Shown here piece by piece: positions 12,847 to 57,106 of a DNA stretch of 64,000 nt (its first letter is position 1; every line of letters starts with the position of its first letter). The DNA comes from Catenulispora pinistramenti (GTDB lineage Bacteria > Actinomycetota > Actinomycetes > Streptomycetales > Catenulisporaceae): positions 1 to 64,000 of the forward strand of contig NZ_JAAFYZ010000002.1 of NCBI RefSeq assembly GCF_018274385.1. Reading direction: 5' to 3'. The notes under the pieces are model-generated. The model saw only the letters and a list, made by a program, of their open reading frames with translations, was not told the DNA's origin and made no database searches. Position numbers and translations under genes: made by a program.

Positions 12847-13287
12847 TCACCAAACCTCCGGCACCTGCCATTGAACGGACAACGGGCGTTGCCCTCCACT
12901 ATCGACGAACTCCTTAACTGCTTGGCGCACAAGTTCAATCGGAACTTCCGAGCGATCCGGGAACTCTGTCAGCTGACCCATGATCAGGTAAGCTGCCTCG
13001 CTTTGCCCATTCGATGATCCTTGAGTCACCAGATTACCTGAATCTGCATCCATGAACGCAAGAACACCTACCGGACGATCCCTATTTACCCCTATCAGCA
13101 ACTCGTGATCAGGGTATCCGGAAGGAAGAAGCGAGCGCTCCAATGAATGCAGTTGGGCCATATTGTGGTACGCCGGACCCGTAAGGAGCGACTCGATCAG
13201 AGTATCGACATCCTCGCTGGTGGTGAGTATCACCGGCTCCTTGCCATGATCCCGTCGGTACCGCGCCTCTACACGGTGCTGCATCAT
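12847..13287 (-). CDS. Imm1-like immunity protein
   Basis: About 146 residues from ATG 13287 (MMQHRVEARYRR). Its ATGA overlaps the RHS stop codon (TGA at 13286-13284) and its ribosome site GGAGGAG lies in the last RHS codons, so toxin and antidote are translationally coupled. The stretches VILTTSEDVDTLIESLL, GPAYHNMAQLHSLERSLL and VPIELVRQAVKEFVDSGGQ match the Imm1 family of polymorphic-toxin immunity proteins, common beside actinobacterial deaminase-type toxins. It should bind and block the toxin tip inside the producing cell. Confidence 0.82.
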   Translation of the reverse strand: MMQHRVEARYRRDHGKEPVILTTSEDVDTLIESLLTGPAYHNMAQLHSLERSLLPSGYPDHELLIGVNRDRPVGVLAFMDADSGNLVTQGSSNGQSEAAYLIMGQLTEFPDRSEVPIELVRQAVKEFVDSGGQRPLSVQWQVPEVW

Positions 13288-16200
13288 CCGGCTCCTCCAT
13301 AGACCTGTGAATCCCATCCCCCGTTCCCGTCAGGCCAGTGTACGGTAAGCGTCCGATCGCCGAGGATAGTGCCCAGAACATCGTCACAGCCGAGCGTCAC
13401 CGTACAGGGGCCAGCCGGGTTGTTAATCACAAGATTCGCGTTGTCGATCCCATCTCGTATCATGGTCGCCGCAAACTTCTGTTCGACGTCACTGGCGCGA
13501 GCGGAATTCGCCGCCCCCGGCAGCCGTCCCGCTGCACGAAGTCTATCGTTGACTATCTGCAGCAAATCGGAGTCGGCAGCCTTGTTTCCACTCACCAGAT
13601 CATAAGAGGTGCCGTCCGCGGCAACTCCAGTGCCCGATGTGGCGCCACCTGCATATTCCGGAAGTCCAGCACCCACTTCTGCCGAATTAAAGCAGCTGGA
13701 GGAATTGTGAACCAATACCGGCGTAGCGCCCGCGACCACATAGTACGTGTGAAGCCCGTCTATCGTCAGGTCGTACGTGACCATCGAGCTTGTGTAGTTA
13801 CGTACGACCAGTACAGTAACGGTCTCGGCGTCATCCGTTTGGAGGCGATCACCGGGCTTGAGCTGCGCGGCGCTGACGAAAGCCTTCGCAGTCAAGTCGT
13901 AGTACGGGTGGTTCTGGGTACCCGTGATCTTTTTTGGCCCATTGCGGGTACTGACGGTTACGTCGCTGAAGTCCGTGTCGGTCAGCGTCTTGTGTATTTC
14001 GTCGACGCGATGGTGTTCGACCGCACCCCCTGGTTGGGCGTCTTCGATCTCGTCGCCTACCGCAACGTCTTGAATTGGCTTTCTAGCGCCATCGGCCATG
14101 AGTACATCGGTGTTGGCCGCGAACGAGTGCGCCCCCGTTGGGCAGCTGGCGGCGTCTTCACCATCGATGGATTCCTCGAATTGGCGACCGAAGCCCGCCA
14201 CCTCAGCAGCACCTTCGCCGAGCGCGGTACCGGCCTCAAGAGCGCCGGTGAAGCTCATACCACGGTATAGCCCCGAATAGTCCGCTGTGACGCCGGACGC
14301 CGTGGTGTAGATCGTGTTGTCCCCGGTAGCCCCTGCGGAAATGCTGATGGCTGCTGGGCCGACGTTTTTGTTGGTCGGACCGCCGAAATTTGAAAGCGCA
14401 GTTCCTAGATCGTCCTGTTGGCAGGTGCCGTTGAGGGCCGAAGCGCAGGCCTTAGCCCAATCTCCGTTTTCATCGGCCCCGTTGTCACCAGCTGCCGCCT
14501 TAGCCCAAGCGTCGTAATAATCCATGAAATACTTGCTTTGACCGCTAACCCAAACATGCGCCGAAATCTGGTACATCTGTTGGCCGTTAACGACGGGCGT
14601 GGTGCCGCCATCACCGAGGCGGGATACACCCTCTGCGCCGGAGGGATCAGACGCGTTGACCGGGTCGTTGCCCGTATAGGCGTAGCCCCCCATGGCTTGT
14701 GGGCTAGTACCTTGGAAGACAGGGTCTGCGGAGATGAAGCGTCCGGTGTTCGGGTCGTATTTGCGAGCACCAATGTCTACGAGCCCTGTTGTGGTGTCGG
14801 TGGTTTTTCCGAGAAACGTGTGGTCGTCCGGCCATGTGGTTGCGGCCTTGCCCCGGGCTTCTCCGTAGGGCGTGGTGTAACGGCGTGCGACTATCTGGCC
14901 GTTAGCGGCGTTGATGGTGGTGTCGCCGGTGCCTTGGCTGTCGGTGACTTCGTAGGTGATGGCGCCGCTGCTGGAGACGGTCATCGTTGCGGCGTTGGGA
15001 TAGTTGTAGTAGCGGTTTCCGGAGACGGCGCTGCCGGTGAGGTGGATCTCGGCATCGTCCAGGTACAACGTGACGCCGGCATTTGCGCCGCCCGTGTCGC
15101 GGCGGATGAGCTGGCTACCGTCCGCGTCGTACAGGTACGTAGAGGAGTCGTTGGCGCTGGAGTCGGTGACCGTGGCCAGGCGGTCTTCGGCATCCCAGGT
15201 GAGGGTTTCGTTGGGGCCCGCTGCGAGTTGGCGGCTGGTGGTGTTGCCTGAGCCGTCGTAGTTATAGGTGTCGGTACCGGTGGTCGGCCCGGTGCGGGTG
15301 ACTTGGCCGAGCAGGTGAGGGCCGTTGCCGCCAGTGGTGGCTGCCCCTGCGGTGTTGGTGGTTCCGGCGCTTGGGTAGTTGCTGGTGGCTGTGGTGTCGT
15401 TGGTGGTGTTGCCAGCGGGATCGTAGTCGGTCTGGGTGGAGCGGTTGCCGGTTTGCGCGCCGTTGCCAAGGCCCGCGACGCCGGTGGCGTCGAAGGTCCA
15501 GGCCTGCCAGTAGGCGGCGGGGCTGGGCATTTGGCCGGTGGCTGTGCCGGTGATCTGGCCTGCCTGTGCAGTAGCCGCGGTGGGCGGGTTGTTCTGGGTC
15601 GATGATGCGCAGGAGCCGAGGCCGCCGACCGCAGCGGTGGGCTTGGTCGGGTCTGTGGTGGCAGCCGGTGTCTGGTCACCGGCGTCGGTCCAGGCGTTGG
15701 TGAGACGACTTGCGTAGTCGTAGGTGAAGCACTGGTTGTCCCGGGCTTGCACGCCGGGCTTGTAGGAGCCGGTGACGTTCTCGTTCTGCAGGTTAGTTGT
15801 CGAGGTCAGGCGGGCTGCGGCGTCGTAGGTGTAGGAGACGTCGTCGATACCGTATTTGTTGAGCTGGGCGGTGTTGTTCGGGTCCGTCCCGGCGCTGGCG
15901 TCGGTGAAGGTGTTGGTGATGCGGTTGGTGGCCTGGTCGTACAGGTTTTGGGTCACGACCTGGCGCGGGTAGTCGCCGACGGTTCGGGACAGGATCTTGC
16001 CGGTCTGGTCGTATTGCGTGTCTAGGACGTCGTCATTGGTGCCGTTGGCTTGCAGCAGCAGGCCGTCGGTGTTGTAGGCGTTGTAGACGGTGTCCGCCGG
16101 CAGTCCCCCGACGGCAGGCAGATCGAGGTGATCCAGCGCCCCCGTGTTCGGGGTGTAGTACATGTTGGTTTGATAGGTGCCTGCCAGCGCGCCTTCGGCA

Positions 16201-19200
16201 CTCGGGATCACAGTCTTTGTGCCGGTGGGCCGGTAGTCGGTGTCGTACCCGGTGGTCTGCATGATGTAGGCGTTGCCGTTGGCGCCGCCGACGTAGCGGA
16301 TGGACGCGTCGGGCTGGCCCTTGTCCAGACTGTCGAAGGTCCAGGCCGCCAGCTGCGAGCTGGGGTTGGCGATCGCGGTGGTGCGGGCCTGAGCCAAGGT
16401 TGTGCGGTCAGTGATGGTGCCAGCGTCGTATTCGCCGGTTTTACGGTTCAGGTTGTCGTAGGTGTAGGCCAATGCGTGGCCGCGACCGTCGGCGGTCGCG
16501 AGCAGGAGCCCTGCGGGGTCGGACACGGTGGTGGTGGTCCCGGTGTCCGGGTCTGTGGTGGTGACGTTGTGTCCGGCCAGGTCGGTGACGTCGGTGGTCC
16601 AGGTGTTCTTCTTGGTGGCGTCGGTGACCGTTGTGGCAGTGCCCTCATTGCCGCCTGGGTTGTAGGTGAACCCATAGCTGGTGACATCGGCGTGGGCCGA
16701 GTTGCCGTCTGGCGCGATCGGGTTGCCTGCGGCGTCGTGGTAGGTCCACAGCGCGGTGGTGCGGCCGCGGACGTCAGTGAAGGTGGAGGATCCGCCCGCG
16801 GTGGACAGGCCGTTGCCAGCCGGGGAGGTGACGTCGGTGCGATCCATGCCCGGGTAGGCGGTGGTGGTGACGGCGCCGGGTATCGGCTTGCCCATTGACT
16901 GCTGGGTGACCGTCAGCGGCCTGGACATCCCGTCGAAGGTCGTGACGCTCTCGGAGGGCATGGTGTTTTCTGCGAATTGCAGCCACTGTCCGCTGGAGGC
17001 TGGGCCACTGTCCCAGTGCGGATTGTAGGTCTTGTACGCCCGACCGAGGCTGTCGTATTGCTGATCGCTGATGACCGTACCGGCCGAGCCGTCGACCGGG
17101 GTGGACTGGGTCTGCACCGCGTCGCCGAACCCGTCGAGCTCTGAGAACGATTCGCCGTAGGACCCGTTTTCCCGCAGGGCCTCGGTTTGCACGAAACTGT
17201 TCGGCGGCGGGGTCGTCGGCGGGGCGCCGCCGTTGAGCACCGTCGGCGCTACACCGACCAGGCTGTAGGTGAACCGCTTGTTCGGGCTCGAGGCGGTGAG
17301 ATGGTCGGGCAGCCAGACGGAGGTGAGCCTGCCCATTCCGTCGTAGTACTGGTAGGTGGATCTGCTATTGGCGTCGGTGGTTTGCTCGACTACTTGCCGG
17401 CCTTGCTCCATGGTTTGGCTGGTAGCCCAGCCGGCTGGGTTTGTGGTTTGGATACTGGTCGGTAGTTCGTAGTGGTCCGGGGTGTAGGTGGTCTGGGTGG
17501 TGTTGTTGTCCGGATCAGTTGTGGAAGTGACACGGCCGTAGTTGTCGAATGCCGAGCTCGTGGTGATCCATGTCAGGTTGCCGGAGGCGTCGACGTTGCT
17601 TGCCTTCTGCACGCTGGTTGGATCCGCCGGACCGAGGATTACACCGGGGGTGGTCGATCCGTCGAACAGGGTTTGTTGTGCCGAGACGAGGTTCGCCTTG
17701 GTCGGCGCGGTTCCTGTTGTGCATGTTCCGCCAGACGGCACGGTCATCGTGCTCTGCCAGTAGGAGACTGCGGTGTGCTCCAGGTCGCTCTGCTCGGTGG
17801 CGTACTTGGTGGTGGTGCACAGTTCCTGAAGGGTTCCGTCGTTCTTGTCGTCGGTGAGGATCAGGTGGCCGTTGCCACCGACGGTGCCGGTCGTGAAGTT
17901 CGGCAGGCTGTTGTCATAGGTGTAGTCGATCTCTGCACGGCGGGTTCCAGTGCTTACCTGGTCGTACGTGACCTTTTTGGCAGCTTCGTCGAAGTGCGCG
18001 CGTTGTTCAGGCAATCCCGGCGGCCGGGGGTGGTCTGCTGTGACAACGGTCATGGGATCGACTGGCACATTCACCACATCGGAGAGGACAGTCGAGGAGT
18101 TGTCGGCAGCGAACGTCTGGACTTCGACTGGCTGTCCGGCCAGGGCGTTGTCGTCGCGAAGCCCGGGATCCCCCGCCTTGAACACGTCGCCGTGGTTGTC
18201 GTTCACCCACACGTGCCCCGAGGAGTCTTGGAACGGGTAGGAGGCGTTGCCGTCCTGGTCCATGCCGCGGAAGTACGTGGTCAGGATCTTGCTGTTACCA
18301 CCTGCTGACGCAGCACCGGTAACGGTCTGTACTTGGGAGAAGCCTCGGAACTGGTCAAAGGTGCGGTAGGCGGCGTCAGCTTGTTCGGAGTCGTTCGTGT
18401 GCCACACCGGTGTACCAAGGAAGGTGTAGTTGGAGACCCGGTCTGGCGAGATTCCTGTCGTGTCCACAGTCCGGACAGACGTCACGATGTATTTGTTGAA
18501 CCAGTCCAGCGTCGGCGCCGTGGCGTTGGGCTGCGTCCAGTACTCCGGATAACACAAGGTATTGTTCGCAGTCACCGTCGGCGCAACTGAGGTGCCGCAG
18601 TCGAAACTCGTGCCGCCCGGATTTCCCAGCCCATAGGTGACCTCGACAAGCGAACCGAGGGTGTCGCTGATCCGGTCCAGACGTAGTCGCTGGTAAGCCG
18701 TGCCAGCAAGGTAGGGCGAGGCCTTCGCCCGGTTGGGCATGAAGGTGCCATGGGTGTACACCTCTGGATCGGTGGACTTGGCAAGGTATCCGTCGCGATT
18801 CACTACCCACCCGGTGTGGGTGATGCCAGCCAGCCACATAGACGGCCGGTCATCGGTGGAGCCGCCGGTTACGGCGTTGAACTGGTGCGGCAGACCGTAC
18901 TCGTCTACCGGCTGATATTCGCCACTGCTACTGCTGTGCACGTTGGTGGTGATCTGCGACAACTGCTCCGTGTTGAAGAATGTCGGCGTGTAGTCGGTAC
19001 AGGCCGCGCCACCGCTGGTACCGTCCACAGTCCCGGCCGCAGTGCAGTGCTGGTCGAACGGTGTATCCACGAACGCGGCAGCATTCGCCGAAGTGATTCC
19101 GGTGGAAGCAATACCGTCAGCAACGGTCACCGCTGCGGTTGGGCACAAGGAGCTATATCCGGCCTCGCCGCTATCGGAGATACAACGTGCAGCTGGGGTG

Positions 19201-20924
19201 AACACCACGTTCTCAGCTGGTGGGAAGACAGCGATATGCGGCCGCAGGCCTTTGGCAGTTGCGGCTGCGGGGGGCGGCGTCCAGCTGACGTTGCTGGTGT
19301 CCCAGCCGTAGTCGATCTGGGCCAGGTAGCCGCCGGCCTGGTATTCGGTCGGGCTCGCGGTAGTGCCGCGTAGGTAGAAGTTCTCTTCCCGGGCATAGGT
19401 GTAGCGGGTCAGGTTCTCGTGTGAGTCGACGACGAAGTCCAGGTTCCACCGCCAGCCGGTCCGGCACACCGACGGATCCGACTTCGTCGGGTCGGCACAA
19501 GCTGCTCCAGCCGGAGACCCGGCGCCGAAAACCGGCACACCCCAGGCCGAGTAGGTGGGGTCCCCGCCGCCGTCATAGGGCAGCCGATTGGCACCGAAGT
19601 AGTACTGGGTGCCGTCAGTGGTGGTCACCCGCCAGTACTGGCCGCCGTCGCCGGTGTTCCCGTTGCTCGCACCCGACAGCAGCTCCACTCGGGATCCGTC
19701 GTCCCCGGCGATCCGCCAGGCGCCCGTGGTTTGGTCCTTGACCAGTTCCCCGCTGCGGCCACCGAAGGAGATCGTGGCGTTGGGGGTCCCCCAACACTCA
19801 TCGCTCGACGTTGGGAACCCGGCCTTCGAACACGGCTTGTAGGAACGCTCGATGTAGCCGGGGCTGTAGTCCCAGCCATCGCCCACCCATGAGCCTTGCG
19901 CGTTGGACACCGAGGTGCGGCCATCGATACTGGCAGAGTCGTAACTCAACGCGATCGTGGGGGTGGCGCCGCCGAGTGCGGGCGGTACAGCGATCGGATA
20001 GCTGTAAGTGAATGACCCCTCGTTGCCGCCTCCGGACCAGGTGTCCGAATCCTTCAACGGTGTTGCCGAATAGTCGCCGTTGGCTCCACTTGGCCCCGAC
20101 GTCGCGGCCAGCACGATCGGCGCGTTGGTTTTGGAGCCAGCCTGCCCGCTTGCATCGGCTGCACCATCGGCGGGGACGGTAACCGTCGCGACCAGCCTGT
20201 GATGTGCGCGGTCGTTGGTGAACGTGACAGGCGTCTGGGTGCGACAGGCTGGCACCTTCGGAGTGGTCAATGCACAGCTCGGCAGAGCGACCAGCTTCAG
20301 CCGATCAGCGAAGTTGCCGCCGAAGGCATCGGAGAATCCGGAGTAGTCCAGCGCGACCTGCGCTGGTGCCCCGGTCTTCGCGCCATCAGCCCGCACCAGC
20401 GTCATCGCCACAGCGCTGGCCCCGGCACTGGATGCCGTCGAATGATCAGCGATCGCCACTGTGACCTTCGGTGCTGGAGTTGTGGCGGACGAGCGCGCAG
20501 CACCAGGCTGCCCTGCTGGGGCTGCCGCGATACTGACAGGCGTCCCCGGTACGGGAATCAAGGACCCTGTCTGACCGGCTCCCCCAGCCGGGGACCCGGC
20601 ATCAAGGTGGGCCGATGCCGACGACAGATCGACCACGACCGAGGCGGCCTTCGGCCAAACCGTCGGTGGGACCGTGTACCCCGCCATCGGCTGAACCGCG
20701 GCAGCAGAATGAACCGTATTGCGGCTCACAGCAGCGATGGACGGCATCTTCGTCACTGGCCGTGGCTGCCACACCTTCGGGTTGTGCGGCCCGTGGGCCG
20801 CCCCGATCGCTGCTGGGCCGGACACCACAGCCAGTCCCATGGAACCGATCGCTACACACGCTGCGAGATAGCGCAGCCGCCGCTGCACAGCGCGGGAACT
20901 GTTCGACGAACCCCATGCCCCCAC
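13284..20924 (-). CDS. RHS polymorphic toxin with Hint domain and DddA-like deaminase tip
   Basis: About 2,546 residues from GTG 20924 (AGGGGG 8 nt upstream); the frame is open to 21023. Order: signal sequence (RRLRYLAACVAIG region), a long N-terminal beta region, many RHS/YD repeats, the core terminus with TGRFISADPVF and YAYTGNDPVNASDPSG, then a Hint autoprocessing domain (about 2267-2407, ending VHN), then a 139-residue toxin tip. The tip has the SCP1.201/DddA-type pattern LVINNPAGPC, C-x5-C (C2507, C2513) and TLTVHWPDG. The active-site triplet is D-V-E (2479-2481) where HxE is usual. It probably deaminates cytosine or a related base in a neighbour cell. Confidence 0.88.
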   Translation of the reverse strand: MGAWGSSNSSRAVQRRLRYLAACVAIGSMGLAVVSGPAAIGAAHGPHNPKVWQPRPVTKMPSIAAVSRNTVHSAAAVQPMAGYTVPPTVWPKAASVVVDLSSASAHLDAGSPAGGAGQTGSLIPVPGTPVSIAAAPAGQPGAARSSATTPAPKVTVAIADHSTASSAGASAVAMTLVRADGAKTGAPAQVALDYSGFSDAFGGNFADRLKLVALPSCALTTPKVPACRTQTPVTFTNDRAHHRLVATVTVPADGAADASGQAGSKTNAPIVLAATSGPSGANGDYSATPLKDSDTWSGGGNEGSFTYSYPIAVPPALGGATPTIALSYDSASIDGRTSVSNAQGSWVGDGWDYSPGYIERSYKPCSKAGFPTSSDECWGTPNATISFGGRSGELVKDQTTGAWRIAGDDGSRVELLSGASNGNTGDGGQYWRVTTTDGTQYYFGANRLPYDGGGDPTYSAWGVPVFGAGSPAGAACADPTKSDPSVCRTGWRWNLDFVVDSHENLTRYTYAREENFYLRGTTASPTEYQAGGYLAQIDYGWDTSNVSWTPPPAAATAKGLRPHIAVFPPAENVVFTPAARCISDSGEAGYSSLCPTAAVTVADGIASTGITSANAAAFVDTPFDQHCTAAGTVDGTSGGAACTDYTPTFFNTEQLSQITTNVHSSSSGEYQPVDEYGLPHQFNAVTGGSTDDRPSMWLAGITHTGWVVNRDGYLAKSTDPEVYTHGTFMPNRAKASPYLAGTAYQRLRLDRISDTLGSLVEVTYGLGNPGGTSFDCGTSVAPTVTANNTLCYPEYWTQPNATAPTLDWFNKYIVTSVRTVDTTGISPDRVSNYTFLGTPVWHTNDSEQADAAYRTFDQFRGFSQVQTVTGAASAGGNSKILTTYFRGMDQDGNASYPFQDSSGHVWVNDNHGDVFKAGDPGLRDDNALAGQPVEVQTFAADNSSTVLSDVVNVPVDPMTVVTADHPRPPGLPEQRAHFDEAAKKVTYDQVSTGTRRAEIDYTYDNSLPNFTTGTVGGNGHLILTDDKNDGTLQELCTTTKYATEQSDLEHTAVSYWQSTMTVPSGGTCTTGTAPTKANLVSAQQTLFDGSTTPGVILGPADPTSVQKASNVDASGNLTWITTSSAFDNYGRVTSTTDPDNNTTQTTYTPDHYELPTSIQTTNPAGWATSQTMEQGRQVVEQTTDANSRSTYQYYDGMGRLTSVWLPDHLTASSPNKRFTYSLVGVAPTVLNGGAPPTTPPPNSFVQTEALRENGSYGESFSELDGFGDAVQTQSTPVDGSAGTVISDQQYDSLGRAYKTYNPHWDSGPASSGQWLQFAENTMPSESVTTFDGMSRPLTVTQQSMGKPIPGAVTTTAYPGMDRTDVTSPAGNGLSTAGGSSTFTDVRGRTTALWTYHDAAGNPIAPDGNSAHADVTSYGFTYNPGGNEGTATTVTDATKKNTWTTDVTDLAGHNVTTTDPDTGTTTTVSDPAGLLLATADGRGHALAYTYDNLNRKTGEYDAGTITDRTTLAQARTTAIANPSSQLAAWTFDSLDKGQPDASIRYVGGANGNAYIMQTTGYDTDYRPTGTKTVIPSAEGALAGTYQTNMYYTPNTGALDHLDLPAVGGLPADTVYNAYNTDGLLLQANGTNDDVLDTQYDQTGKILSRTVGDYPRQVVTQNLYDQATNRITNTFTDASAGTDPNNTAQLNKYGIDDVSYTYDAAARLTSTTNLQNENVTGSYKPGVQARDNQCFTYDYASRLTNAWTDAGDQTPAATTDPTKPTAAVGGLGSCASSTQNNPPTAATAQAGQITGTATGQMPSPAAYWQAWTFDATGVAGLGNGAQTGNRSTQTDYDPAGNTTNDTTATSNYPSAGTTNTAGAATTGGNGPHLLGQVTRTGPTTGTDTYNYDGSGNTTSRQLAAGPNETLTWDAEDRLATVTDSSANDSSTYLYDADGSQLIRRDTGGANAGVTLYLDDAEIHLTGSAVSGNRYYNYPNAATMTVSSSGAITYEVTDSQGTGDTTINAANGQIVARRYTTPYGEARGKAATTWPDDHTFLGKTTDTTTGLVDIGARKYDPNTGRFISADPVFQGTSPQAMGGYAYTGNDPVNASDPSGAEGVSRLGDGGTTPVVNGQQMYQISAHVWVSGQSKYFMDYYDAWAKAAAGDNGADENGDWAKACASALNGTCQQDDLGTALSNFGGPTNKNVGPAAISISAGATGDNTIYTTASGVTADYSGLYRGMSFTGALEAGTALGEGAAEVAGFGRQFEESIDGEDAASCPTGAHSFAANTDVLMADGARKPIQDVAVGDEIEDAQPGGAVEHHRVDEIHKTLTDTDFSDVTVSTRNGPKKITGTQNHPYYDLTAKAFVSAAQLKPGDRLQTDDAETVTVLVVRNYTSSMVTYDLTIDGLHTYYVVAGATPVLVHNSSSCFNSAEVGAGLPEYAGGATSGTGVAADGTSYDLVSGNKAADSDLLQIVNDRLRAAGRLPGAANSARASDVEQKFAATMIRDGIDNANLVINNPAGPCTVTLGCDDVLGTILGDRTLTVHWPDGNGGWDSQVYGGAG

Positions 20925-21271
20925 CAGGCACCCCCTGAGATGATCAAATCGTGCCAAAGCACCGCCTAAAGCGATCAAGGCGGCGCGAGGGACGATAGCC
21001 AGACTCGAACAGATCGTCCACATACGGACCTTGACTCAACGCCCGTTTATAACGATTCAGCTCAACCATTTGGCTACCTAGCGTCATATCAGTGTTCTGA
21101 TACAGGTCGGTTTCGACTGGTTTAGACCACCGAGATCATCTCGCAGCGTGAATCTGTCACTGTCATCTATAACGATTTCGACAGCGTAGATCGGTTGTCG
21201 ACCCTTGATCCGCCCCGTAGGTTGCGCACGCGCGCACGCTGGCGCGCGTTCAGCGCCGAGGAGGACCGTTG
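20925..21271. promoter_or_regulatory. Divergent promoter region between RHS and lectin genes
   Basis: No gene fits here. Two direct copies of TATAACGATT (near 21048 and 21169) face the two divergent genes, and TTGACT occurs at 21031-21036. The plus-strand gene has AGGAGG at 21259-21264. The shared element suggests joint control of the RHS toxin and the secreted lectin, but no regulator can be named. Confidence 0.35.
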
Positions 21272-51549: not shown

Positions 51550-52005
51550 GTGTCCCACCACTCCATCACGCTCCCAGGCAGCACAGAGTGCATTCACGAG
51601 GCGCGCACGTGGGTCCGTGACACGCTTGGCGAGAATCAGGGCGTCGATGACGCGGTGCTGGTCGCGTCCGAACTCGCCACGAACGCCATCCGGCACTCTG
51701 CCAGCGGCCGGCCCGGTGGCACCTTCACACTGCACGTTGCCGCCTTCACCGATCGCTGGCACGTGCGCGTGGACGACGCTGGCGGGCTCAGCGTGCCCCG
51801 GATCCAAACAGTTGACGACGACCATGACGAAGCTGGCAGAGGGTTGGCCATGGTCGCCAGCTTGTCGTTGAGGTGGGGTGTCTTCGGCGACTACCGCGCA
51901 CGCGGTGTGTGGGCCGAGGTCCCGATTCCTGACAGCGTCAGCCCCGACGACGAGAGCGAGGCGTACTTCCCACTGCTGAATTACCTGGAGAGCCGCTGTC
52001 CCTGA
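51550..52005 (+). CDS. Anti-sigma-type HATPase (RsbW-like)
   Basis: 151 residues from GTG 51550, 3 bp after the preceding stop. The GHKL ATP-binding fold shows the N-box VLVASELATNAIRHSASG, the G1-like WHVRVDDAGG, and GRGLAMVASLSLRWG with the glycine lid. Standalone proteins like this bind sigma or anti-anti-sigma factors in actinomycetes. No partner is encoded next to it. Third gene of a three-gene run. Confidence 0.85.
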   Translation: MSHHSITLPGSTECIHEARTWVRDTLGENQGVDDAVLVASELATNAIRHSASGRPGGTFTLHVAAFTDRWHVRVDDAGGLSVPRIQTVDDDHDEAGRGLAMVASLSLRWGVFGDYRARGVWAEVPIPDSVSPDDESEAYFPLLNYLESRCP

Positions 52006-52051: not shown

Positions 52052-52094
52052 GTGCCCTGCTGATCGCCGACGCAGCGAACGCCGCTCAGGGCAC
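52052..52094. terminator. Weak long-loop inverted repeat
   Basis: GTGCCCTG (52052-52059) and CAGGGCAC (52087-52094) pair over 8 bp with a 27-nt loop, between the convergent HATPase and methyltransferase genes. Plausible but weak as a terminator. Confidence 0.3.
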
Positions 52095-52916
52095 ATCGTT
52101 TGCTGCTCTACCCACGGCCAGCAGGTGGCTTGCCGCAGCCAGCAATTCGGGATGACCGTCGGCGAGCCGGGCGGCGGCCAGCACCGAGGCGAACAGCGGA
52201 TCATCGACCTCGCCGATGGCCACGCCCCGGGCCTCGGCGGCCCGCAGCATCCCCCAGGCCGGGCCTTCCACGCCGAACACCTGCACGTCGGCGATGCCGG
52301 CGGCGGCCATCTCGTCGGCCAGCAGCGCCGGGGGGTGGAAGAACGCGGTGGTGAACCGGCCCGGCGGCGGCTTGATCAGCTCGCCGGAGGCCATGATGCC
52401 GGCGACCGAGGCATGCACGCCGGGCCGGGCCAGGATCCCGAGGCCGGCATTCTCGAACAGGGACGCGAAGCGTCCGATCGCGGCGGCGGCGACTACGGCA
52501 CCGGGGCGGGCGACCCGAACCGCCTCAGAAAGCACCAGAGCCCGATCCTTGGGATCGGGGAGGTGATACAGCGGCCCCATCAGCAGTACCGCGTCGAAGG
52601 ACGCCGATTCGGCCGGCAGGTCGCGCGCGTCGCCGAGCTCAGCGGGCAGGCCAGCGTCCCGGGCCGCGGCCACGTGCTTGGGCATCGGGTCGATAAGCAG
52701 GCAGCGGTGACCGTCGTCGGTCAGCCAGGACGAGTGGACGCCGGTCCCTCCGCCGACGTCCAGGACGTCGAAGCCCCCCTCTGGCAGGAAGCGACGCAGG
52801 ATCTCCTGGGTGCGCAGCAGTTCCAGCCGCCCATCCGCCGCGTCTAGCAGGCGCCTGGCCTCGTCCTTGCCGCCGTAGTAGTCCGCGATCTCGGGAGCTA
52901 GTGAGAGTCCGTCCAT
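52086..52916 (-). CDS. Class I SAM-dependent methyltransferase
   Basis: 276 residues from ATG 52916 (MDGLSLAPEIADYYGG). Motif I is VLDVGGGTGVHSSWLTDDGH; LLIDPMPKHV is the acidic strand-2 end, and FDAVLLMGPLYHLPD fits motif IV. The substrate is not evident. It is divergent from the GntR gene and shares its operator region (palindrome at 52944), so it may be a tailoring enzyme of the nearby peptide pathway or a bystander under the same regulator. Confidence 0.85.
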   Translation of the reverse strand: MDGLSLAPEIADYYGGKDEARRLLDAADGRLELLRTQEILRRFLPEGGFDVLDVGGGTGVHSSWLTDDGHRCLLIDPMPKHVAAARDAGLPAELGDARDLPAESASFDAVLLMGPLYHLPDPKDRALVLSEAVRVARPGAVVAAAAIGRFASLFENAGLGILARPGVHASVAGIMASGELIKPPPGRFTTAFFHPPALLADEMAAAGIADVQVFGVEGPAWGMLRAAEARGVAIGEVDDPLFASVLAAARLADGHPELLAAASHLLAVGRAANDVP

Positions 52917-52943
52917 GGGATGGATTCTGCCCGCTAAAGTGGG

Positions 52944-52959
52944 GGTGGACCAGTCCACC
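52944..52959. promoter_or_regulatory. GntR operator 1 (GGTGGACCAGTCCACC)
   Basis: A perfect 16-bp palindrome (7-bp arms, CA centre) between the divergent methyltransferase and GntR genes, 28 bp before the methyltransferase start and 16 bp before the GntR start. A near-identical site lies at 53762. Confidence 0.75.
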
Positions 52960-52974
52960 ATGTCAGGAGATTCG

Positions 52975-53706
52975 ATGGCGCCGACCCTGCACGAGCAGAT
53001 CACGGGACAGCTGCGCGAGCAGATGGAGGACGGGACGCTGCCGCCAGGCGCGCCAGTTCCCTCCAGTCGGGCTCTGGCTGACCAGTGGGGCTGCTCGCGG
53101 GTGACCGCCTCGGACGCGCTGCGGGCACTGGCCCGCGACGGGCAGATCCTCGATCGCAAGGGGCTGGGGTTCTTCGTCACTGACACCCCGGTTGCACGTC
53201 CAGCCGGGCGACGCGCGGCTGGCACAGCCCGCGTCGACGGGGCGCTGCCGTTCAAGATCCTTGGCCGACCCGGCTACCGGGTCCCGCCGCCGCATGTCGC
53301 CGCCGCCCTGGGCATCGCCGAGGACGAAGAAGCCCTGGCCCGCATCAGGTTGCTGCACCTGCCCGGCGGCGAGCCGGTGTCGGTGGTCACGGCCTGGTTC
53401 GCCCGGAGCGTCGCCGAGCGTTGCGAACTGCTGCATCGCACCGCACCGATTCCGGGCGGCACCACCAGGCACATCACCGCCCGCACCGGCTTGCGCCCGG
53501 TGCTCGGCCGCGACGTGACCACTCCGACCGTCGCTGCCGACTTGGCCGCCGACGTCCGCACGGCGCTGGGCCTGGCCGCCGAGGCGGCGGTGCTGGTGGT
53601 GCTGCACATCGCCCAAACCGCCGACGACACTGCGGTGGTGGTCGAGGAGGGCTTCACCGGCGGTGGATTCGCCGAGCGCGTCGACGAGTACCCGATGGAC
53701 GTCTGA
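52975..53706 (+). CDS. GntR-family regulator (UTRA type)
   Basis: 243 residues from ATG 52975, with AGGAGA 6 nt upstream. The N-terminal winged helix has LHEQITGQLREQMEDGTLPP, VPSSRALADQWGCSRVTASD and LRALARDGQILDRKGLGFFV. The C-terminal UTRA ligand domain carries ARIRLLHLPGGEPVSVVTAW. It lies between two copies of the same palindrome, so it probably represses itself, the divergent methyltransferase and the peptide genes, released by a small ligand. Confidence 0.9.
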   Translation: MAPTLHEQITGQLREQMEDGTLPPGAPVPSSRALADQWGCSRVTASDALRALARDGQILDRKGLGFFVTDTPVARPAGRRAAGTARVDGALPFKILGRPGYRVPPPHVAAALGIAEDEEALARIRLLHLPGGEPVSVVTAWFARSVAERCELLHRTAPIPGGTTRHITARTGLRPVLGRDVTTPTVAADLAADVRTALGLAAEAAVLVVLHIAQTADDTAVVVEEGFTGGGFAERVDEYPMDV

Positions 53707-53761
53707 CAGCGCCTGAATCACCCTCGATGGCGGCGAAGCCGCATAAGGCCTTGACTGGACT

Positions 53762-53777
53762 GGTGGACTGGTCCACC
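53762..53777 (+). promoter_or_regulatory. GntR operator 2 (GGTGGACTGGTCCACC)
   Basis: Same 16-bp palindrome as at 52944 with only the two centre bases changed (TG for CA). It lies 50 bp before the first RiPP-locus gene, where it would cover the promoter. Confidence 0.75.
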
Positions 53778-53826
53778 TTAGTTAGTGCTCTGACATACGC
53801 GACCCTTCTGAGAGCGCGAGGCGACC

Positions 53827-54237
53827 ATGAGCACTGACACAGCGCGCACCGACGCGCCCATCACACGCCCTGAAGCAACAGACCACCTGTTGGCGATCCC
53901 CGACCTGCCAACAGTGACCTGCGAGGCCTTCCCCCCACCGCGCGACCTGGAGCAGTTTCGAGCCGCCTCGGCCGCCGCAGAAGGCGACCCGGTCGAGGAG
54001 ATCGACGCCTGCCTGGTCCGGAGCGACATGACCATCTGGTTTCCCGACCCGACACCGGGCCGTTGGCGGCCGGTGAGGAAGGGCAACGTCGCCGGGCCCA
54101 AGACGGTGATCGAGTTCGCCGTCCCGCCTCCGTATTCGTCCTCTTGGACACTCGCCTCCGACCGGCCTGTCTGCCGACGGATCACCTCCCAGGAGACCCG
54201 TCTATCATCGCCCGACGCCGAGTCCAGCCACGTCTGA
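53827..54237 (+). CDS. Unknown protein, first gene of the RiPP operon
   Basis: 136 residues from ATG 53827 (GAGGCGACC upstream). No recognised domain. Visible features: an acidic N-terminal half (TCEAFPPPRDLEQFRAASA, DPVEEIDACLVRSDMTIWFP), a WRPVRKGN segment, and a Ser-rich end. No signal peptide or membrane helix. It directly follows the GntR operator and precedes the radical SAM gene by 19 bp, so it belongs to that operon; it could help peptide recognition, but nothing in the sequence proves it. Confidence 0.6.
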   Translation: MSTDTARTDAPITRPEATDHLLAIPDLPTVTCEAFPPPRDLEQFRAASAAAEGDPVEEIDACLVRSDMTIWFPDPTPGRWRPVRKGNVAGPKTVIEFAVPPPYSSSWTLASDRPVCRRITSQETRLSSPDAESSHV

Positions 54238-54256
54238 GCTGGGAGGAGAACGCGTC

Positions 54257-55426
54257 ATGAGCATCGCCCCCACGGCCGAACTCGCTACTGCCGCCGTCTT
54301 CGCTCGCTGGATCGCTCCGCGACCGTCGTTGGTGGTCATGCAGCCGGACACCTTCTGCAACATGGACTGCGCCGCCTACTGCTACCTGCCGCAGCGCAAG
54401 AGGCGGAACCGGATGCCGGTCGCAGTCGCGCAAGCAGTCGCGGCGTCCCTGACCAGCCTTGGCCCGGACGAGTTTGGTCAGCGGCAGATTGTCGAGGTCT
54501 GCTGGCACGGCGGGGAGCCCCTGGCAGTCGGCGTTGAGGCGATGACCGAGTTGCTGGCCCCGTTCGAGCCGCTGCGGGCCGCCGGGCTGATCCACCACTC
54601 CGTCCAGACCAACGCCACGCTGATCAACGACGACTGGTGCGACCTGTTCCAGCACTACAGCTTCAGCGTCGGGGTCAGCATCGACGGCCCGGCCGACCTG
54701 AACGCCCGCCGGACCGACCGGGCCGGACGGCCCGCGCACGACCGGATCATGGGCGGGATCGGCAGGCTGCGCCAGCGCGGCATCGAGTTCTCGGTGATCG
54801 CCGTGGTCGGCACCGACGGCATCGGCCGAGCTGAGGACCTGCTGGACTTTCTGGCAGGCCTGGGCGCGACCCAGATCGGCTTCAACATCGAGGAGTTCGA
54901 GGGCAGCAACGCCGGCGACCAGCCCAGGCCGGCCGAAGCCCGCGGATTCTGGACCGCGGCGATCGCCTGGTCCACCGCACACCCGGGCGTCAGAATCCGG
55001 GAGCTGGACCGGCTGGGCGGCTACTTGGGCACGATCCGGGCCGGAGAGCGCGCGGTCTGGGAGGCTCACAGCTTCGACCCGCTGCCCACCATCGCCTTCA
55101 ACGGCGACGTCATCCTGCTCTCCCCAGAACTGGCCGGGATCCGTGACGAGCACTACGGCGACTTCGTCGCCGGCAACGTCCTGGAGCAGGACCTCGGGTC
55201 GATCGTGGCCCGCGCCTGGCAGCTGCCCTACGTCACCGAGTTCATCGACGGCTTGGCGGCCTGCCGTGCCACCTGCGGCTTCTTCGACTTCTGTCGCGGC
55301 GCGACAGCCGGGAACCGCTACTTCGAGAACGGCACCTTCGCCTCCACCGAAACCAACTACTGCCGGGTCTCCCGACAAGAGCTCGTCAACGCCCTCATCG
55401 ACACAACCCGCAAGGAGGAACCGTGA
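54257..55426 (+). CDS. Radical SAM/SPASM peptide maturase
   Basis: 389 residues from ATG 54257 (GGGAGGAG upstream). The cluster motif is FCNMDCAAYCYLP (C34, C38, C42): C-x3-C-x3-C, one residue longer than the normal C-x3-C-x2-C. Then come EVCWHGGEPL, HHSVQTNATLINDDW, SVGVSIDGPADLNARR and IGFNIEEFEG, all typical of the GrrM/FxsB/XyeB-like maturases. The C-terminal SPASM-like region has CRATCGFFDFC and a final NYC. Family members form three-residue cyclophane crosslinks between an aromatic ring and the beta carbon two residues on. Its stop overlaps the precursor start (GTGA). Confidence 0.85.
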   Translation: MSIAPTAELATAAVFARWIAPRPSLVVMQPDTFCNMDCAAYCYLPQRKRRNRMPVAVAQAVAASLTSLGPDEFGQRQIVEVCWHGGEPLAVGVEAMTELLAPFEPLRAAGLIHHSVQTNATLINDDWCDLFQHYSFSVGVSIDGPADLNARRTDRAGRPAHDRIMGGIGRLRQRGIEFSVIAVVGTDGIGRAEDLLDFLAGLGATQIGFNIEEFEGSNAGDQPRPAEARGFWTAAIAWSTAHPGVRIRELDRLGGYLGTIRAGERAVWEAHSFDPLPTIAFNGDVILLSPELAGIRDEHYGDFVAGNVLEQDLGSIVARAWQLPYVTEFIDGLAACRATCGFFDFCRGATAGNRYFENGTFASTETNYCRVSRQELVNALIDTTRKEEP

Positions 55427-55590
55427 ACCCACTGGCAACACTCATCGAATCCGAACACCCCGCCGTCCTGGCCCTGGCCGACGCCACGGCCCCGACAGCA
55501 GGCAAGTGGGACAACCGCGCCAGCTGGGACAACAACACTCCCGCCTTCGACAACCGCCCCACCTGGGATAACTGGGACAAGAAGAAGTGA
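55423..55590 (+). CDS. RiPP precursor peptide with WDN/FDN repeats
   Basis: 55 residues from GTG 55423, overlapping the maturase stop; its ribosome site AAGGAGG lies in the end of the maturase gene. Residues 1-27 look like a leader (PLATLIESEHPAVLALADAT). The C-terminal core has W29-D30-N31, W35-D36-N37, F42-D43-N44 and W48-D49-N50, then W51-D52 and a K-K-K end. Aromatic-x-Asn triplets are the substrate pattern of three-residue cyclophane (triceptide) formation, so up to four rings are expected. No protease or exporter is seen nearby. Confidence 0.8.
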   Translation: MNPLATLIESEHPAVLALADATAPTAGKWDNRASWDNNTPAFDNRPTWDNWDKKK

Positions 55591-55672
55591 CCCATGATCT
55601 GCGCGGCTCGGTCCGCCAGGCCGGGCCGCGCGTTACGCGGGACGGTCAGCGCCGACACCTAGGGTGAGGAAC

Positions 55673-56344
55673 ATGCAGCAGCTTGAGATCCGGGCCACCC
55701 GCGCGGCCCTGCCGAACCTGGACGACGCCGGCCTGGAGGACGTCGACACCCTGGTCAACCGGCTCGGCGCTTTGACCGAGTTTCGCCTGGCCGACGCCGA
55801 GGTGCGGTCTCTGGAAGTCTCCGACCAGCGCTTAACCACCGGCCGCGTCGAGGGTCTGCGGGTCGAACGGGCCAAGCTGCACGAGGTTCGCATGGACTCA
55901 GTCGAGTTCACCGGCTGCGACCTGTCGGGAGCCGCCTTCACCGGCGGACGATGGTCACGCGTCCGCTTCGCCAACTGCAAGATCCTCTCCGGGCAGTTCG
56001 ACGGCCTCGCCTTCGAAGACGTCATCTTCGACCGCTGCAAACTGGACTACGCGGTCTTCGGCAACGTCACCGCGAAAGGCCCGGTCATCTTCCGGGACTG
56101 CTCGCTGGAGGAGGCCGAGTTCTCCGGCTGCGACCTGTCAAAGGCTGCGTTCGACGACTGCCGCATGGACCTGACCACCTTCGAACGCACCACAGCCCGG
56201 GGCCTGGACCTGCGCGGCAACGACCTGTCCGGCATCCGCGGCATCGCCTCACTCAAGCACGCCGTCATCGAACCGGCCCAGACCATGCAACTGGGCCGCG
56301 CCCTGGTCGGCGACCTGGAGCTGAGCCTGCCCGACGACGACTGA
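55673..56344 (+). CDS. Pentapeptide-repeat protein, possible self-resistance
   Basis: 223 residues from ATG 55673 (an in-frame GTG at 55664 is possible). About residues 85-195 form a right-handed quadrilateral helix: repeating A(D/N)LxX-type units such as FTGCDLSGAAFTGGRWSRVR, FDRCKLDYAVFG and FSGCDLSKAAFDDCRMDLTT, with Phe or Leu at the centre of each turn. Pentapeptide-repeat proteins in peptide-antibiotic loci (for example McbG, AlbG) often protect DNA gyrase. Position after the precursor suggests that role here; it is inference. Confidence 0.75.
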   Translation: MQQLEIRATRAALPNLDDAGLEDVDTLVNRLGALTEFRLADAEVRSLEVSDQRLTTGRVEGLRVERAKLHEVRMDSVEFTGCDLSGAAFTGGRWSRVRFANCKILSGQFDGLAFEDVIFDRCKLDYAVFGNVTAKGPVIFRDCSLEEAEFSGCDLSKAAFDDCRMDLTTFERTTARGLDLRGNDLSGIRGIASLKHAVIEPAQTMQLGRALVGDLELSLPDDD

Positions 56345-56368
56345 CACCCCACGAGGGGGAAGATCACT

Positions 56369-57106
56369 TTGAGTGTCCGCATCGCTTTCACCGACCCGCA
56401 CGCTCTGATCGAACGCTGCGACACCACCGAAGTCCGCATCGCGGCCGGGCTGGACGATGTCGAGGACAGCGCCGTCATCCCCACCGACGACTGGCGTCCG
56501 CTCACTCCGGTACAGGCCCAACGCCTCCGCGCCACCGCTAGCGACAACCCGAGCACCGTGACCGAGATCGTCAGCGTCCTGGCCGACTGGTCGGTCGCCG
56601 CCCCCGGCCGGCCACTGATTGAGCACGTCGCTGGCTTCGACCCCTTCGCCGGCCGCTACGGCGCCGACTTCCTGGCTGCGGTCGACGAGCAACCCGGCCA
56701 GCCCACGACCACCATCGACCCAGGTGTCGGCCTGCGCCTCGGCATCCACCTGGACAACCACGACAAGCTGCCACTGGCCGAGCGCACCGCCAGCAGGCGC
56801 CGCGTCGGCCTCAATCTCGGCCCCGGACACCGCTACCTGCTGCTCGGAACCACCGATGTCCTCGACATCTGCGCCGCCAACGGCGCCGACCGGCGGTACT
56901 ACCCACATACCAACGACATCCGCCGCCACGTCGCCGCCGGAGGGCTACTGCGCCTGTTGCGCATCCGCCTGGATCCCGGGGACGCGTACATCACGCCCAC
57001 AGAGCTCGTTCCACACGACGGCTCCACCCTGATCGCGAAGGACCCCTCTCGCATCGCTTTCTGGCTCGGGCACTGGCCGACAGGGACATTAGAGTCCCTG
57101 ATCTGA
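56369..57106 (+). CDS. Possible Fe(II)/2-oxoglutarate-type oxygenase of the RiPP locus
   Basis: 245 residues from TTG 56369 (GAGGGGGA 8 nt upstream), 24 bp after the pentapeptide-repeat gene. A beta-rich middle part has RLGIHLDNHDKLPLAE (an HxD pair), LNLGPGHRYLLLG, a YYPHTNDIRRHV segment and LRIRLDPGDAYITPTE, then SRIAFWLGHW. Two His and an Asp in this arrangement with a jelly-roll-like pattern suggest a cupin-type oxygenase, maybe hydroxylating the peptide. The family is not certain; an unknown beta-barrel protein is the alternative. Confidence 0.5.
   Translation: MSVRIAFTDPHALIERCDTTEVRIAAGLDDVEDSAVIPTDDWRPLTPVQAQRLRATASDNPSTVTEIVSVLADWSVAAPGRPLIEHVAGFDPFAGRYGADFLAAVDEQPGQPTTTIDPGVGLRLGIHLDNHDKLPLAERTASRRRVGLNLGPGHRYLLLGTTDVLDICAANGADRRYYPHTNDIRRHVAAGGLLRLLRIRLDPGDAYITPTELVPHDGSTLIAKDPSRIAFWLGHWPTGTLESLI

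What the first reader, a model, noticed from the sequence alone, without database searches (positions are those of the whole stretch)
52944..57106. Candidate new triceptide-type RiPP system with repeated WDN/FDN core
Seen: a 55-residue precursor with four aromatic-Asp-Asn triplets (WDN, WDN, FDN, WDN) starts on the stop codon of a radical SAM/SPASM maturase, followed by a pentapeptide-repeat protein and a possible oxygenase. Known: GrrM, XyeB and FxsB-like enzymes make cyclophanes on aromatic-x-Asn (or similar) triplets. Inferred: the product carries up to four cyclophane rings, with aspartate at each middle position. I know of no named family with this exact core.
Basis: partly seen in the sequence, partly recalled or inferred. 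Interest (0 to 1): 0.93.

Follow-up and report, generated by a model that had tools for sequence, protein, structure and literature searches.

The report
Multi-ring peptide cassette with odd maturase
A soil actinomycete carries a peptide-making cassette of the already named AmcA/AmcB family, whose enzyme is predicted to tie small rings into a short peptide; it matters because a pentapeptide-repeat gene, likely for self-protection, lies near this type of peptide gene in all relatives examined, and because this lineage's enzyme has an extra residue in its usually fixed iron-sulphur motif.

Summary
The maturase (54257-55426) and the 55-residue peptide (55423-55590) exceed the NCBIfam cut-offs for AmcB (502 vs 425 bits) and AmcA (67 vs 40), "multiple cyclophane-containing RiPP". 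Of 54 amcA-bearing public loci, 52 have a pentapeptide-repeat protein (PRP) gene on the same strand beside amcA and two a weak PRP match on the other strand; 37 also have the last gene, a remote homologue of the oxygenase MicC. AmcB-family loci with other cores lack the PRP (L051, G095, G196), so the PRP goes with the WDN/FDN core. No exporter or protease recurs as widely. Special to Catenulispora: AmcB has CX3CX3C instead of CX3CX2C (13 of 120 listed homologues, one clade, dN/dS 0.2-0.4), and a GntR gene lies between two copies of a 16-base palindrome found nowhere else in the 11.46-Mb genome. Most likely AmcB ties up to four aromatic-Asp-Asn rings, the oxygenase hydroxylates the product, and the PRP protects the producer. 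Chemistry is inferred by homology, the PRP role is a hypothesis; nothing was measured.

The parts
52944..52959 (.). 16-base palindrome GGTGGACCAGTCCACC, predicted GntR operator 1 (in front of gntR)
   Evidence: only two exact copies in the 11,463,658-base genome; same relative place in L007 and L045
52975..53706 (+). GntR/UTRA-type regulator; likely start ATG 52975 behind AGGAG (in-frame ATGs also at 52915 and 52960)
   Evidence: Pfam GntR E 2.9e-12, UTRA 1.4e-8; close homologue beside amc only in L007 and L045 of 70 loci
53762..53777 (.). 16-base palindrome GGTGGACTGGTCCACC (reverse complement of site 1), predicted operator 2, in front of the amc transcript
53827..54237 (+). 136-aa protein of unknown function, first gene after operator 2
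   Evidence: no Pfam or NCBIfam match above cut-off; homologues only in L007 and L045 of 70 loci
54257..55426 (+). amcB: radical SAM/SPASM cyclophane maturase, with CX3CX3C at residues 34, 38, 42
   Evidence: NF041718 502.4 bits, cut-off 425; Cys motif
55423..55590 (+). amcA: 55-aa precursor; WDN 29-31, WDN 35-37, FDN 42-44, WDN 48-50, then WDK 51-53
   Evidence: NF041721 67.2 bits, cut-off 40
55664..56344 (+). pentapeptide-repeat protein (start likely ATG 55673)
   Evidence: Pfam Pentapeptide_4 E 3.6e-19; homologue on the same strand in 52 of 54 amcA-bearing loci, weak and on the other strand in 2
56369..57106 (+). MicC-like Fe(II)/alpha-ketoglutarate oxygenase, 245 aa; putative metal triad H127, D129, H216
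   Evidence: profile A2 to PDB 9vkm MicC E 3.1e-15 with the triad aligned; triad invariant in the 27 proteins aligned

Best explanation
This is a Catenulispora member of the AmcA/AmcB family, in which the radical SAM enzyme AmcB likely joins the aromatic residue to the Asn of each of the four aromatic-Asp-Asn triplets of AmcA, the neighbouring MicC-like oxygenase likely hydroxylates the ringed core, and the pentapeptide-repeat protein, a neighbour of this core type in all relatives examined, would protect the producing cell from the product. Shown by sequence: family membership, overlap of amcB and amcA, the PRP as partner of WDN/FDN-type cores, the oxygenase as frequent partner with a conserved HxD...H triad, the CX3CX3C motif, and the GntR gene with its two private palindromes. 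Inferred from relatives: the rings (OscB, of the second-best family, joins Trp C7 to C-beta of Asn or Asp, and XncB or OscB joins Phe C4 to C-beta of Asn; PMC11002830, passages read) and hydroxylation (ChlH hydroxylates Asp and His on a peptide that already carries a cyclophane; PMC12636437, passages read). Hypothesis only: PRP as self-protection, perhaps of DNA gyrase, by analogy with PRPs in other antibiotic clusters (PMC9231227, passages read). No exporter or protease is a widely shared neighbour, so export and leader removal would be done elsewhere, or the product stays in the cell.
For: Both family models over cut-off. 45 of 47 complete precursors have four triplets, with Asp in the middle of 172 of 188. 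PRP within 1.5 kb in 54 of 54 amcA-bearing loci (52 same strand), oxygenase within 3 kb in 37 of 54. In a sample of 394 genomes of the class 8 have AmcB over cut-off: the 6 with a WDN-type core have the PRP, the 2 with another core have none within about 7 kb. In 14 genomes of the host's family the six strong PRP hits (190-491 bits) lie directly after the six AmcB genes over cut-off; the best PRP elsewhere scores 53 bits (two of these genomes are the C. pinisilvae and C. rubra already counted). Pairwise distances of AmcB and PRP correlate at r 0.94 over 47 loci, AmcB and oxygenase at 0.95 over 34. The oxygenase profile finds MicC at E 3e-15 with the triad aligned, and similar genes lie beside maturases in two cyanobacteria (L063, a GrrM/OscB at 549 bits, and L067, not family-tested).
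Confidence: 0.6

Rival explanations
1. The PRP is not an immunity protein but a dedicated intracellular partner (carrier, scaffold or target) of the modified peptide, and the product acts inside the cell.
For: The smallest conserved unit is amcB-amcA-PRP with no widely shared exporter or protease; the PRP stays where the oxygenase is missing (17 of 54 loci); it is absent where the core is of another type (L051, G095, G196), as expected of a protein that recognises this core.
Against: PRPs in other biosynthetic clusters are known as gyrase/topoisomerase protectors (PMC9231227, passages); absence with other cores fits immunity as well; exporters and proteases can be encoded elsewhere.
Confidence: 0.3
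2. A new, unnamed triceptide family.
For: The host clade has a changed Cys motif and its own regulator.
Against: Precursor and maturase are over the curated cut-offs of NF041721 and NF041718.
Confidence: 0.04
3. The Catenulispora AmcB has lost or changed its radical chemistry because of the inserted residue in the cluster motif, and the cassette is decaying or does something else.
For: CX3CX3C in the 13 best-scoring proteins, the window's own included; lower model confidence at the motif.
Against: dN/dS 0.20-0.40 among four Catenulispora copies, and one clade of 12 inserted sequences in the tree; precursor, PRP and oxygenase stay intact beside it in L007, L008 and L045.
Confidence: 0.12

Closest known systems
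AmcA/AmcB (NCBIfam NF041721 / NF041718), multiple cyclophane-containing RiPP and its maturase
   Same: precursor and maturase over cut-off; same order; four aromatic-Asp-Asn triplets in two pairs
   Different: CX3CX3C instead of CX3CX2C; own GntR gene with two palindromes; PRP and oxygenase are not part of these two models
GrrM/OscB (TIGR04261), cyclophane-forming maturase
   Same: second-best family (256 bits); OscB joins Trp to C-beta of Asn/Asp (PMC11002830, passages)
   Different: below cut-off 310; the four cyanobacterial loci fetched (L063-L065, L067; only L063 family-tested) had no PRP
MicC, PDB 9vkm, alpha-ketoglutarate-dependent non-heme iron oxygenase
   Same: remote homologue of the 245-aa protein, HxD...HDGST aligned
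   Different: the profile match covers 156 of 244 positions; I saw no paper on MicC, so its substrate is unknown to me
Pentapeptide-repeat proteins of the Qnr/MfpA type
   Same: repeat family; QnrB1, MfpA and 'McbG-like' proteins among the solved sequence relatives
   Different: no Qnr or MfpA model reached its cut-off; gyrase protection untested
ChlB/ChlH (fused radical SAM and aKG-HExxH)
   Same: cyclophane then hydroxylation in one pathway (PMC12636437, passages); ChlB is the best solved sequence relative of AmcB
   Different: ChlH is an HExxH enzyme, not an HxD...H one; separate genes here

Membership tests
AmcB (NF041718) | maturase over curated cut-off (425 bits) | tested here: met
   502.4 bits, E 6.7e-151
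AmcA (NF041721) | precursor over curated cut-off (40 bits) | tested here: met
   67.2 bits
AmcA/AmcB | several three-residue cyclophanes in the product | not testable with these tools
   needs co-expression, MS and NMR
Triceptides | aromatic-X-Asn/Asp-type triplets beside a radical SAM/SPASM maturase | tested here: met
Radical SAM superfamily | Pfam Radical_SAM over cut-off | tested here: met
   49.2 bits, cut-off 29.5
Radical SAM superfamily | usual cluster motif CX3CX2C | tested here: not met
   C34-X3-C38-X3-C42; same in 13 of the 120 listed homologues, own included
GrrM/OscB (TIGR04261) | over cut-off 310 bits | tested here: not met
   256.5 bits
FxsB (TIGR04269) | over cut-off 370 bits | tested here: not met
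   78.8 bits
XyeB (TIGR04496) | over cut-off 450 bits | tested here: not met
   53.7 bits
Fe(II)/alpha-ketoglutarate oxygenases (MicC-like) | HxD...H metal triad in a homologous sequence | tested here: met
   invariant in 27 of 27 aligned proteins, aligned to MicC; of 56 hit ORFs in loci 39 hold both HxDN and HDGST letter for letter, the other 17 being cut or split frames or real changes
Fe(II)/alpha-ketoglutarate oxygenases (MicC-like) | double-stranded beta-helix fold | tested here: inconclusive
Pentapeptide-repeat proteins | Pfam pentapeptide models over cut-off | tested here: met
   PF13599 69.1 bits, cut-off 38
Qnr / MfpA gyrase-protecting PRPs | over NCBIfam cut-offs | tested here: not met
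   43.8 vs 240 and 26.2 vs 360 bits
Qnr / MfpA gyrase-protecting PRPs | binds and protects DNA gyrase | not testable with these tools
   needs a supercoiling assay

The most novel reading that the evidence does not exclude
The AMC cassette makes a gyrase- or topoisomerase-directed multi-cyclophane peptide, guarded by its own pentapeptide-repeat protein, a triceptide with an inbuilt target read-out; and in Catenulispora it is built by a working radical SAM enzyme whose cluster is held by CX3CX3C.
Probability: 0.15. Interest if true: 0.8.

Novelty: new variant of a known kind. Interest (0 to 1): 0.45.

Why it matters
The function of AmcA products was not stated in anything I read. A PRP that goes with the WDN/FDN core, and not with AmcB-family loci of other cores, gives a direct, testable hint at target or partner. 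The natural CX3CX3C enzymes would test how strictly radical SAM chemistry needs the CX3CX2C spacing. The private GntR palindromes offer a handle for switching the cluster on.

Tried and rejected
Rejected: a new unnamed family. GrrM, FxsB and XyeB as the family of this maturase (all under cut-off). HExxH-type hydroxylase for the 245-aa protein: the invariant residues are HxD...H and the homologue is MicC. A pathway-wide exporter or protease: (ORFs of 80 aa or more, GC3 at least 0.8 unless a core gene, the 23 widest families printed) the families outside AmcB, PRP and oxygenase that reach more than 3 of 15 genera are antisense frames of AmcB or PRP by their position; among the rest a transporter-like family (judged by eye) is in 5 loci of 3 genera. 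Short genes and AmcA itself are outside that count, and genus labels were set by me from record titles. AmcA-PRP fusion: one case (L071, one open frame through both), but its amcB frame is broken, so I give it no weight.

Led nowhere: no paper on AmcA/AmcB was found, but both asked for two terms together, so a paper naming AmcB alone would be missed. [quoted passage not shown] that it covers AMC is my guess. No paper on the oxygenase MicC was among the 15 of 76 listed. 'Pentapeptide repeat' with 'cyclophane': 0 papers. CX3CX3C or CxxxCxxxC with radical SAM: 2 papers; one uses CX3CX3C once for NifB, which it calls CX3CX2C elsewhere (passages), the other for a core peptide (passages). All these searches cover open PubMed Central papers only. 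The AmcB model does not settle the state of the motif: no coordinates are given and confidence there is moderate. VIA and Foldseek rows shown for the oxygenase are all weak, and MicC is not among them.

Rows dropped before counts: the triplet count uses 47 of 56 precursors (nine dropped as partial, fused or extended: L026, L029, L037, L054, L056, L058, L061, L071, L075). The synteny count uses the 70 loci, of which 54 were classed amcA-bearing (four, L058, L061, L068 and L075, put in by hand as partial or more distant); of the other 16, L037 has PRP and oxygenase but no clear precursor, two cyanobacterial ones have only an oxygenase, 13 have neither. Three of the 17 loci without oxygenase hold under 2 kb downstream (L031, L046, L056), so absence there is not shown. 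The distance correlation uses 47 and 34 loci after dropping partial ones. In the dN/dS run two of the four genes began a few codons too early, a small error. In one search the L013 peptide was given one base out of frame, so its lack of a hit means nothing. In some searches only 4 and 7 candidates a genome were scored in the class sample. Two class-sample loci below the AmcB cut-off (L084, L086) have PRP matches only on the other strand, 56 and 78 bits.
Full report
WHAT IS THERE. The window is from a Catenulispora-like genome (contig G000:C112; nearest named copies are C. pinisilvae and C. rubra). On the + strand, in order: a GntR/UTRA regulator, a 136-aa protein of unknown function, amcB, amcA, a pentapeptide-repeat protein (PRP) and a 245-aa protein. 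The amcA start overlaps the amcB stop. In 38 of 47 complete precursors (the window's own counted) the start lies at the same -1 offset, which points to translational coupling.

FAMILY. The maturase scores 502 bits against NF041718 (AmcB, cut-off 425) and the peptide 67 bits against NF041721 (AmcA, cut-off 40), both equivalog models; GrrM/OscB is second at 256 of 310 bits. About 66 of the 120 homologues listed already carry the name AmcB (counted by eye; 1882 were found). In a sample of 394 genomes of the class, 8 have AmcB over cut-off.

CORE PEPTIDE. Across 47 complete precursors there are 188 triplets: WDN 121, FDN 51, FNN 8, WNN 4, WGN 2, WSN 2; 45 of 47 have four. The usual layout is two pairs, such as FDNRPTWDN. 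Of 71 WDNW stretches 68 go on to W-x-K. In darobactin a Lys and a Trp are joined by a carbon-carbon bond (abstract of PMC9055067, seen), so this K deserves a look as a further crosslink; some precursors (L013, L016, L017) have no W after WDN at all, so it cannot be essential. AmcB-family enzymes also serve other cores: L051, G095 and G196.

PARTNERS. One search gave 70 loci; 54 have an amcA. A PRP match lies within 1.5 kb in 54 of 54: 52 on the same strand, and in L052 and L068 a weak one (57 and 53 bits) on the other strand. The 245-aa gene lies within 3 kb in 37 of 54. In a comparison of neighbours only AmcB and PRP (15 genera, 54 loci each) and the oxygenase (8 genera, 37 loci) recur widely. 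In 14 genomes of the host's family the strong PRP hits (six, 190-491 bits) lie directly after the AmcB genes over cut-off (six), the next PRP being at 53 bits. Of the 8 class-sample genomes over the AmcB cut-off, the 6 with a WDN-type core (one of them, G354, with a single FDN/WDN pair) have the PRP next to it, and the 2 with another core (G095, G196, one genus) show no PRP within about 7 kb. So the PRP goes with the core rather than with the enzyme. The oxygenase profile finds, in 394 class genomes, two genes (one of them split), both in AmcB genomes, and two fragments of 33 residues or fewer. Distances of AmcB, PRP and oxygenase correlate at 0.92-0.95, as co-inheritance predicts, though shared descent alone would do the same.

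OXYGENASE. No Pfam or NCBIfam model matches. The profile of 27 homologues finds one solved protein at E under 0.001, MicC (9vkm), at E 3e-15, with H127, D129 and H216 aligned; with the single sequence E is 0.0013. The fold search gives only weak matches; most rows shown are iron/2-oxoglutarate enzymes (JmjC, WelO5, AlkB, KdoO, FtmOx1), with a few others such as acireductone dioxygenase and a sugar epimerase. Similar genes lie beside maturases in two cyanobacteria, L063 (GrrM/OscB, 549 bits) and L067. I infer a tailoring hydroxylase of cyclophane peptides; ChlH is a published case of Asp/His hydroxylation that depends on a preinstalled cyclophane (PMC12636437, passages read), but by a different enzyme type.

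PRP. Pfam places it firmly among pentapeptide-repeat proteins. Solved sequence relatives include 2w7z, QnrB1, MfpA and McbG-like proteins, but it reaches no Qnr or MfpA cut-off. PRPs guard gyrase in the cystobactamid producer and have served as beacons for topoisomerase inhibitors (PMC9231227, passages read). Self-protection is therefore my lead hypothesis, an intracellular partner role the main rival; neither is tested.

THE CYS MOTIF. The 13 best-scoring proteins, the window's own included, have C-X3-C-X3-C; 106 of the 120 listed have C-X3-C-X2-C and one has lost a Cys. In a tree of 72 maturases the 12 inserted ones form one group (support 97/94, one change). Among four Catenulispora copies dN is 0.034-0.098 and dS 0.086-0.47, so the gene is under constraint. 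In the open papers searched I found no radical SAM maturase described with this spacing; the review seen says the motif is usually CX3CX2C (passages). The AlphaFold model is moderately sure at the motif (78 and 74), which decides nothing.

REGULATION. The palindrome GGTGGACYRGTCCACC occurs at 52944-52959 and 53762-53777 and, without mismatch, nowhere else in 11.46 Mb. Both sites recur at the same relative places in C. pinisilvae (L007) and C. rubra (L045), where the GntR gene and the 136-aa gene also recur, but not at the second C. pinisilvae copy (L008). I infer an autoregulated GntR switch private to this copy.

VERDICT. A known family, here with a PRP partner that goes with its core type, a MicC-like oxygenase, and a lineage-specific change in the radical SAM motif. 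Chemistry and function remain to be measured.

Noticed in passing
L051:9072-9368: An Acidobacteriota maturase over the AmcB cut-off (447.6 bits) is followed by a small ORF with two W-R-G-N-F repeats and no WDN; possibly a different core for the same enzyme family.
   Followed up: partly
L115:7115-7531 (-) and L116:7098-7514 (-): Two genomes of one genus have an AmcB-type maturase beside a frame ending WNHFENIPTFYNWNNRPR, with no PRP within about 7 kb: another core type served by the AmcB family.
   Followed up: partly
window 55573-55581 (amcA residues 51-53): W-x-K follows WDN in 68 of 71 WDNW stretches of homologous precursors; a possible further crosslink site.
   Followed up: partly
window 13287-21035, strand -: A single open frame of 2583 residues that also holds three [WFY]DN triplets; from its start it looks like a large secreted repeat protein, not examined.
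   Followed up: no
window 51550-52005, strand +, and L008 upstream of amcB: An anti-sigma-factor-like ATPase (HATPase_c_2) lies before the window's cluster; a similar-looking frame seems to lie right before amcB in the second C. pinisilvae copy (by eye).
   Followed up: no
window 52089-52919, strand -: A methyltransferase gene diverges from the GntR gene across operator 1 (family matches all below cut-off); it may share the operator.
   Followed up: no
L043:7850-8575: Oxygenase homologue of Rhizohabitans with Tyr at the place of the distal His (PYDGST), so perhaps inactive or differently liganded.
   Followed up: no
L071:8246-9085: In Streptomyces radicis amcA and the PRP read as one open frame, beside a broken amcB frame.
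   Followed up: partly
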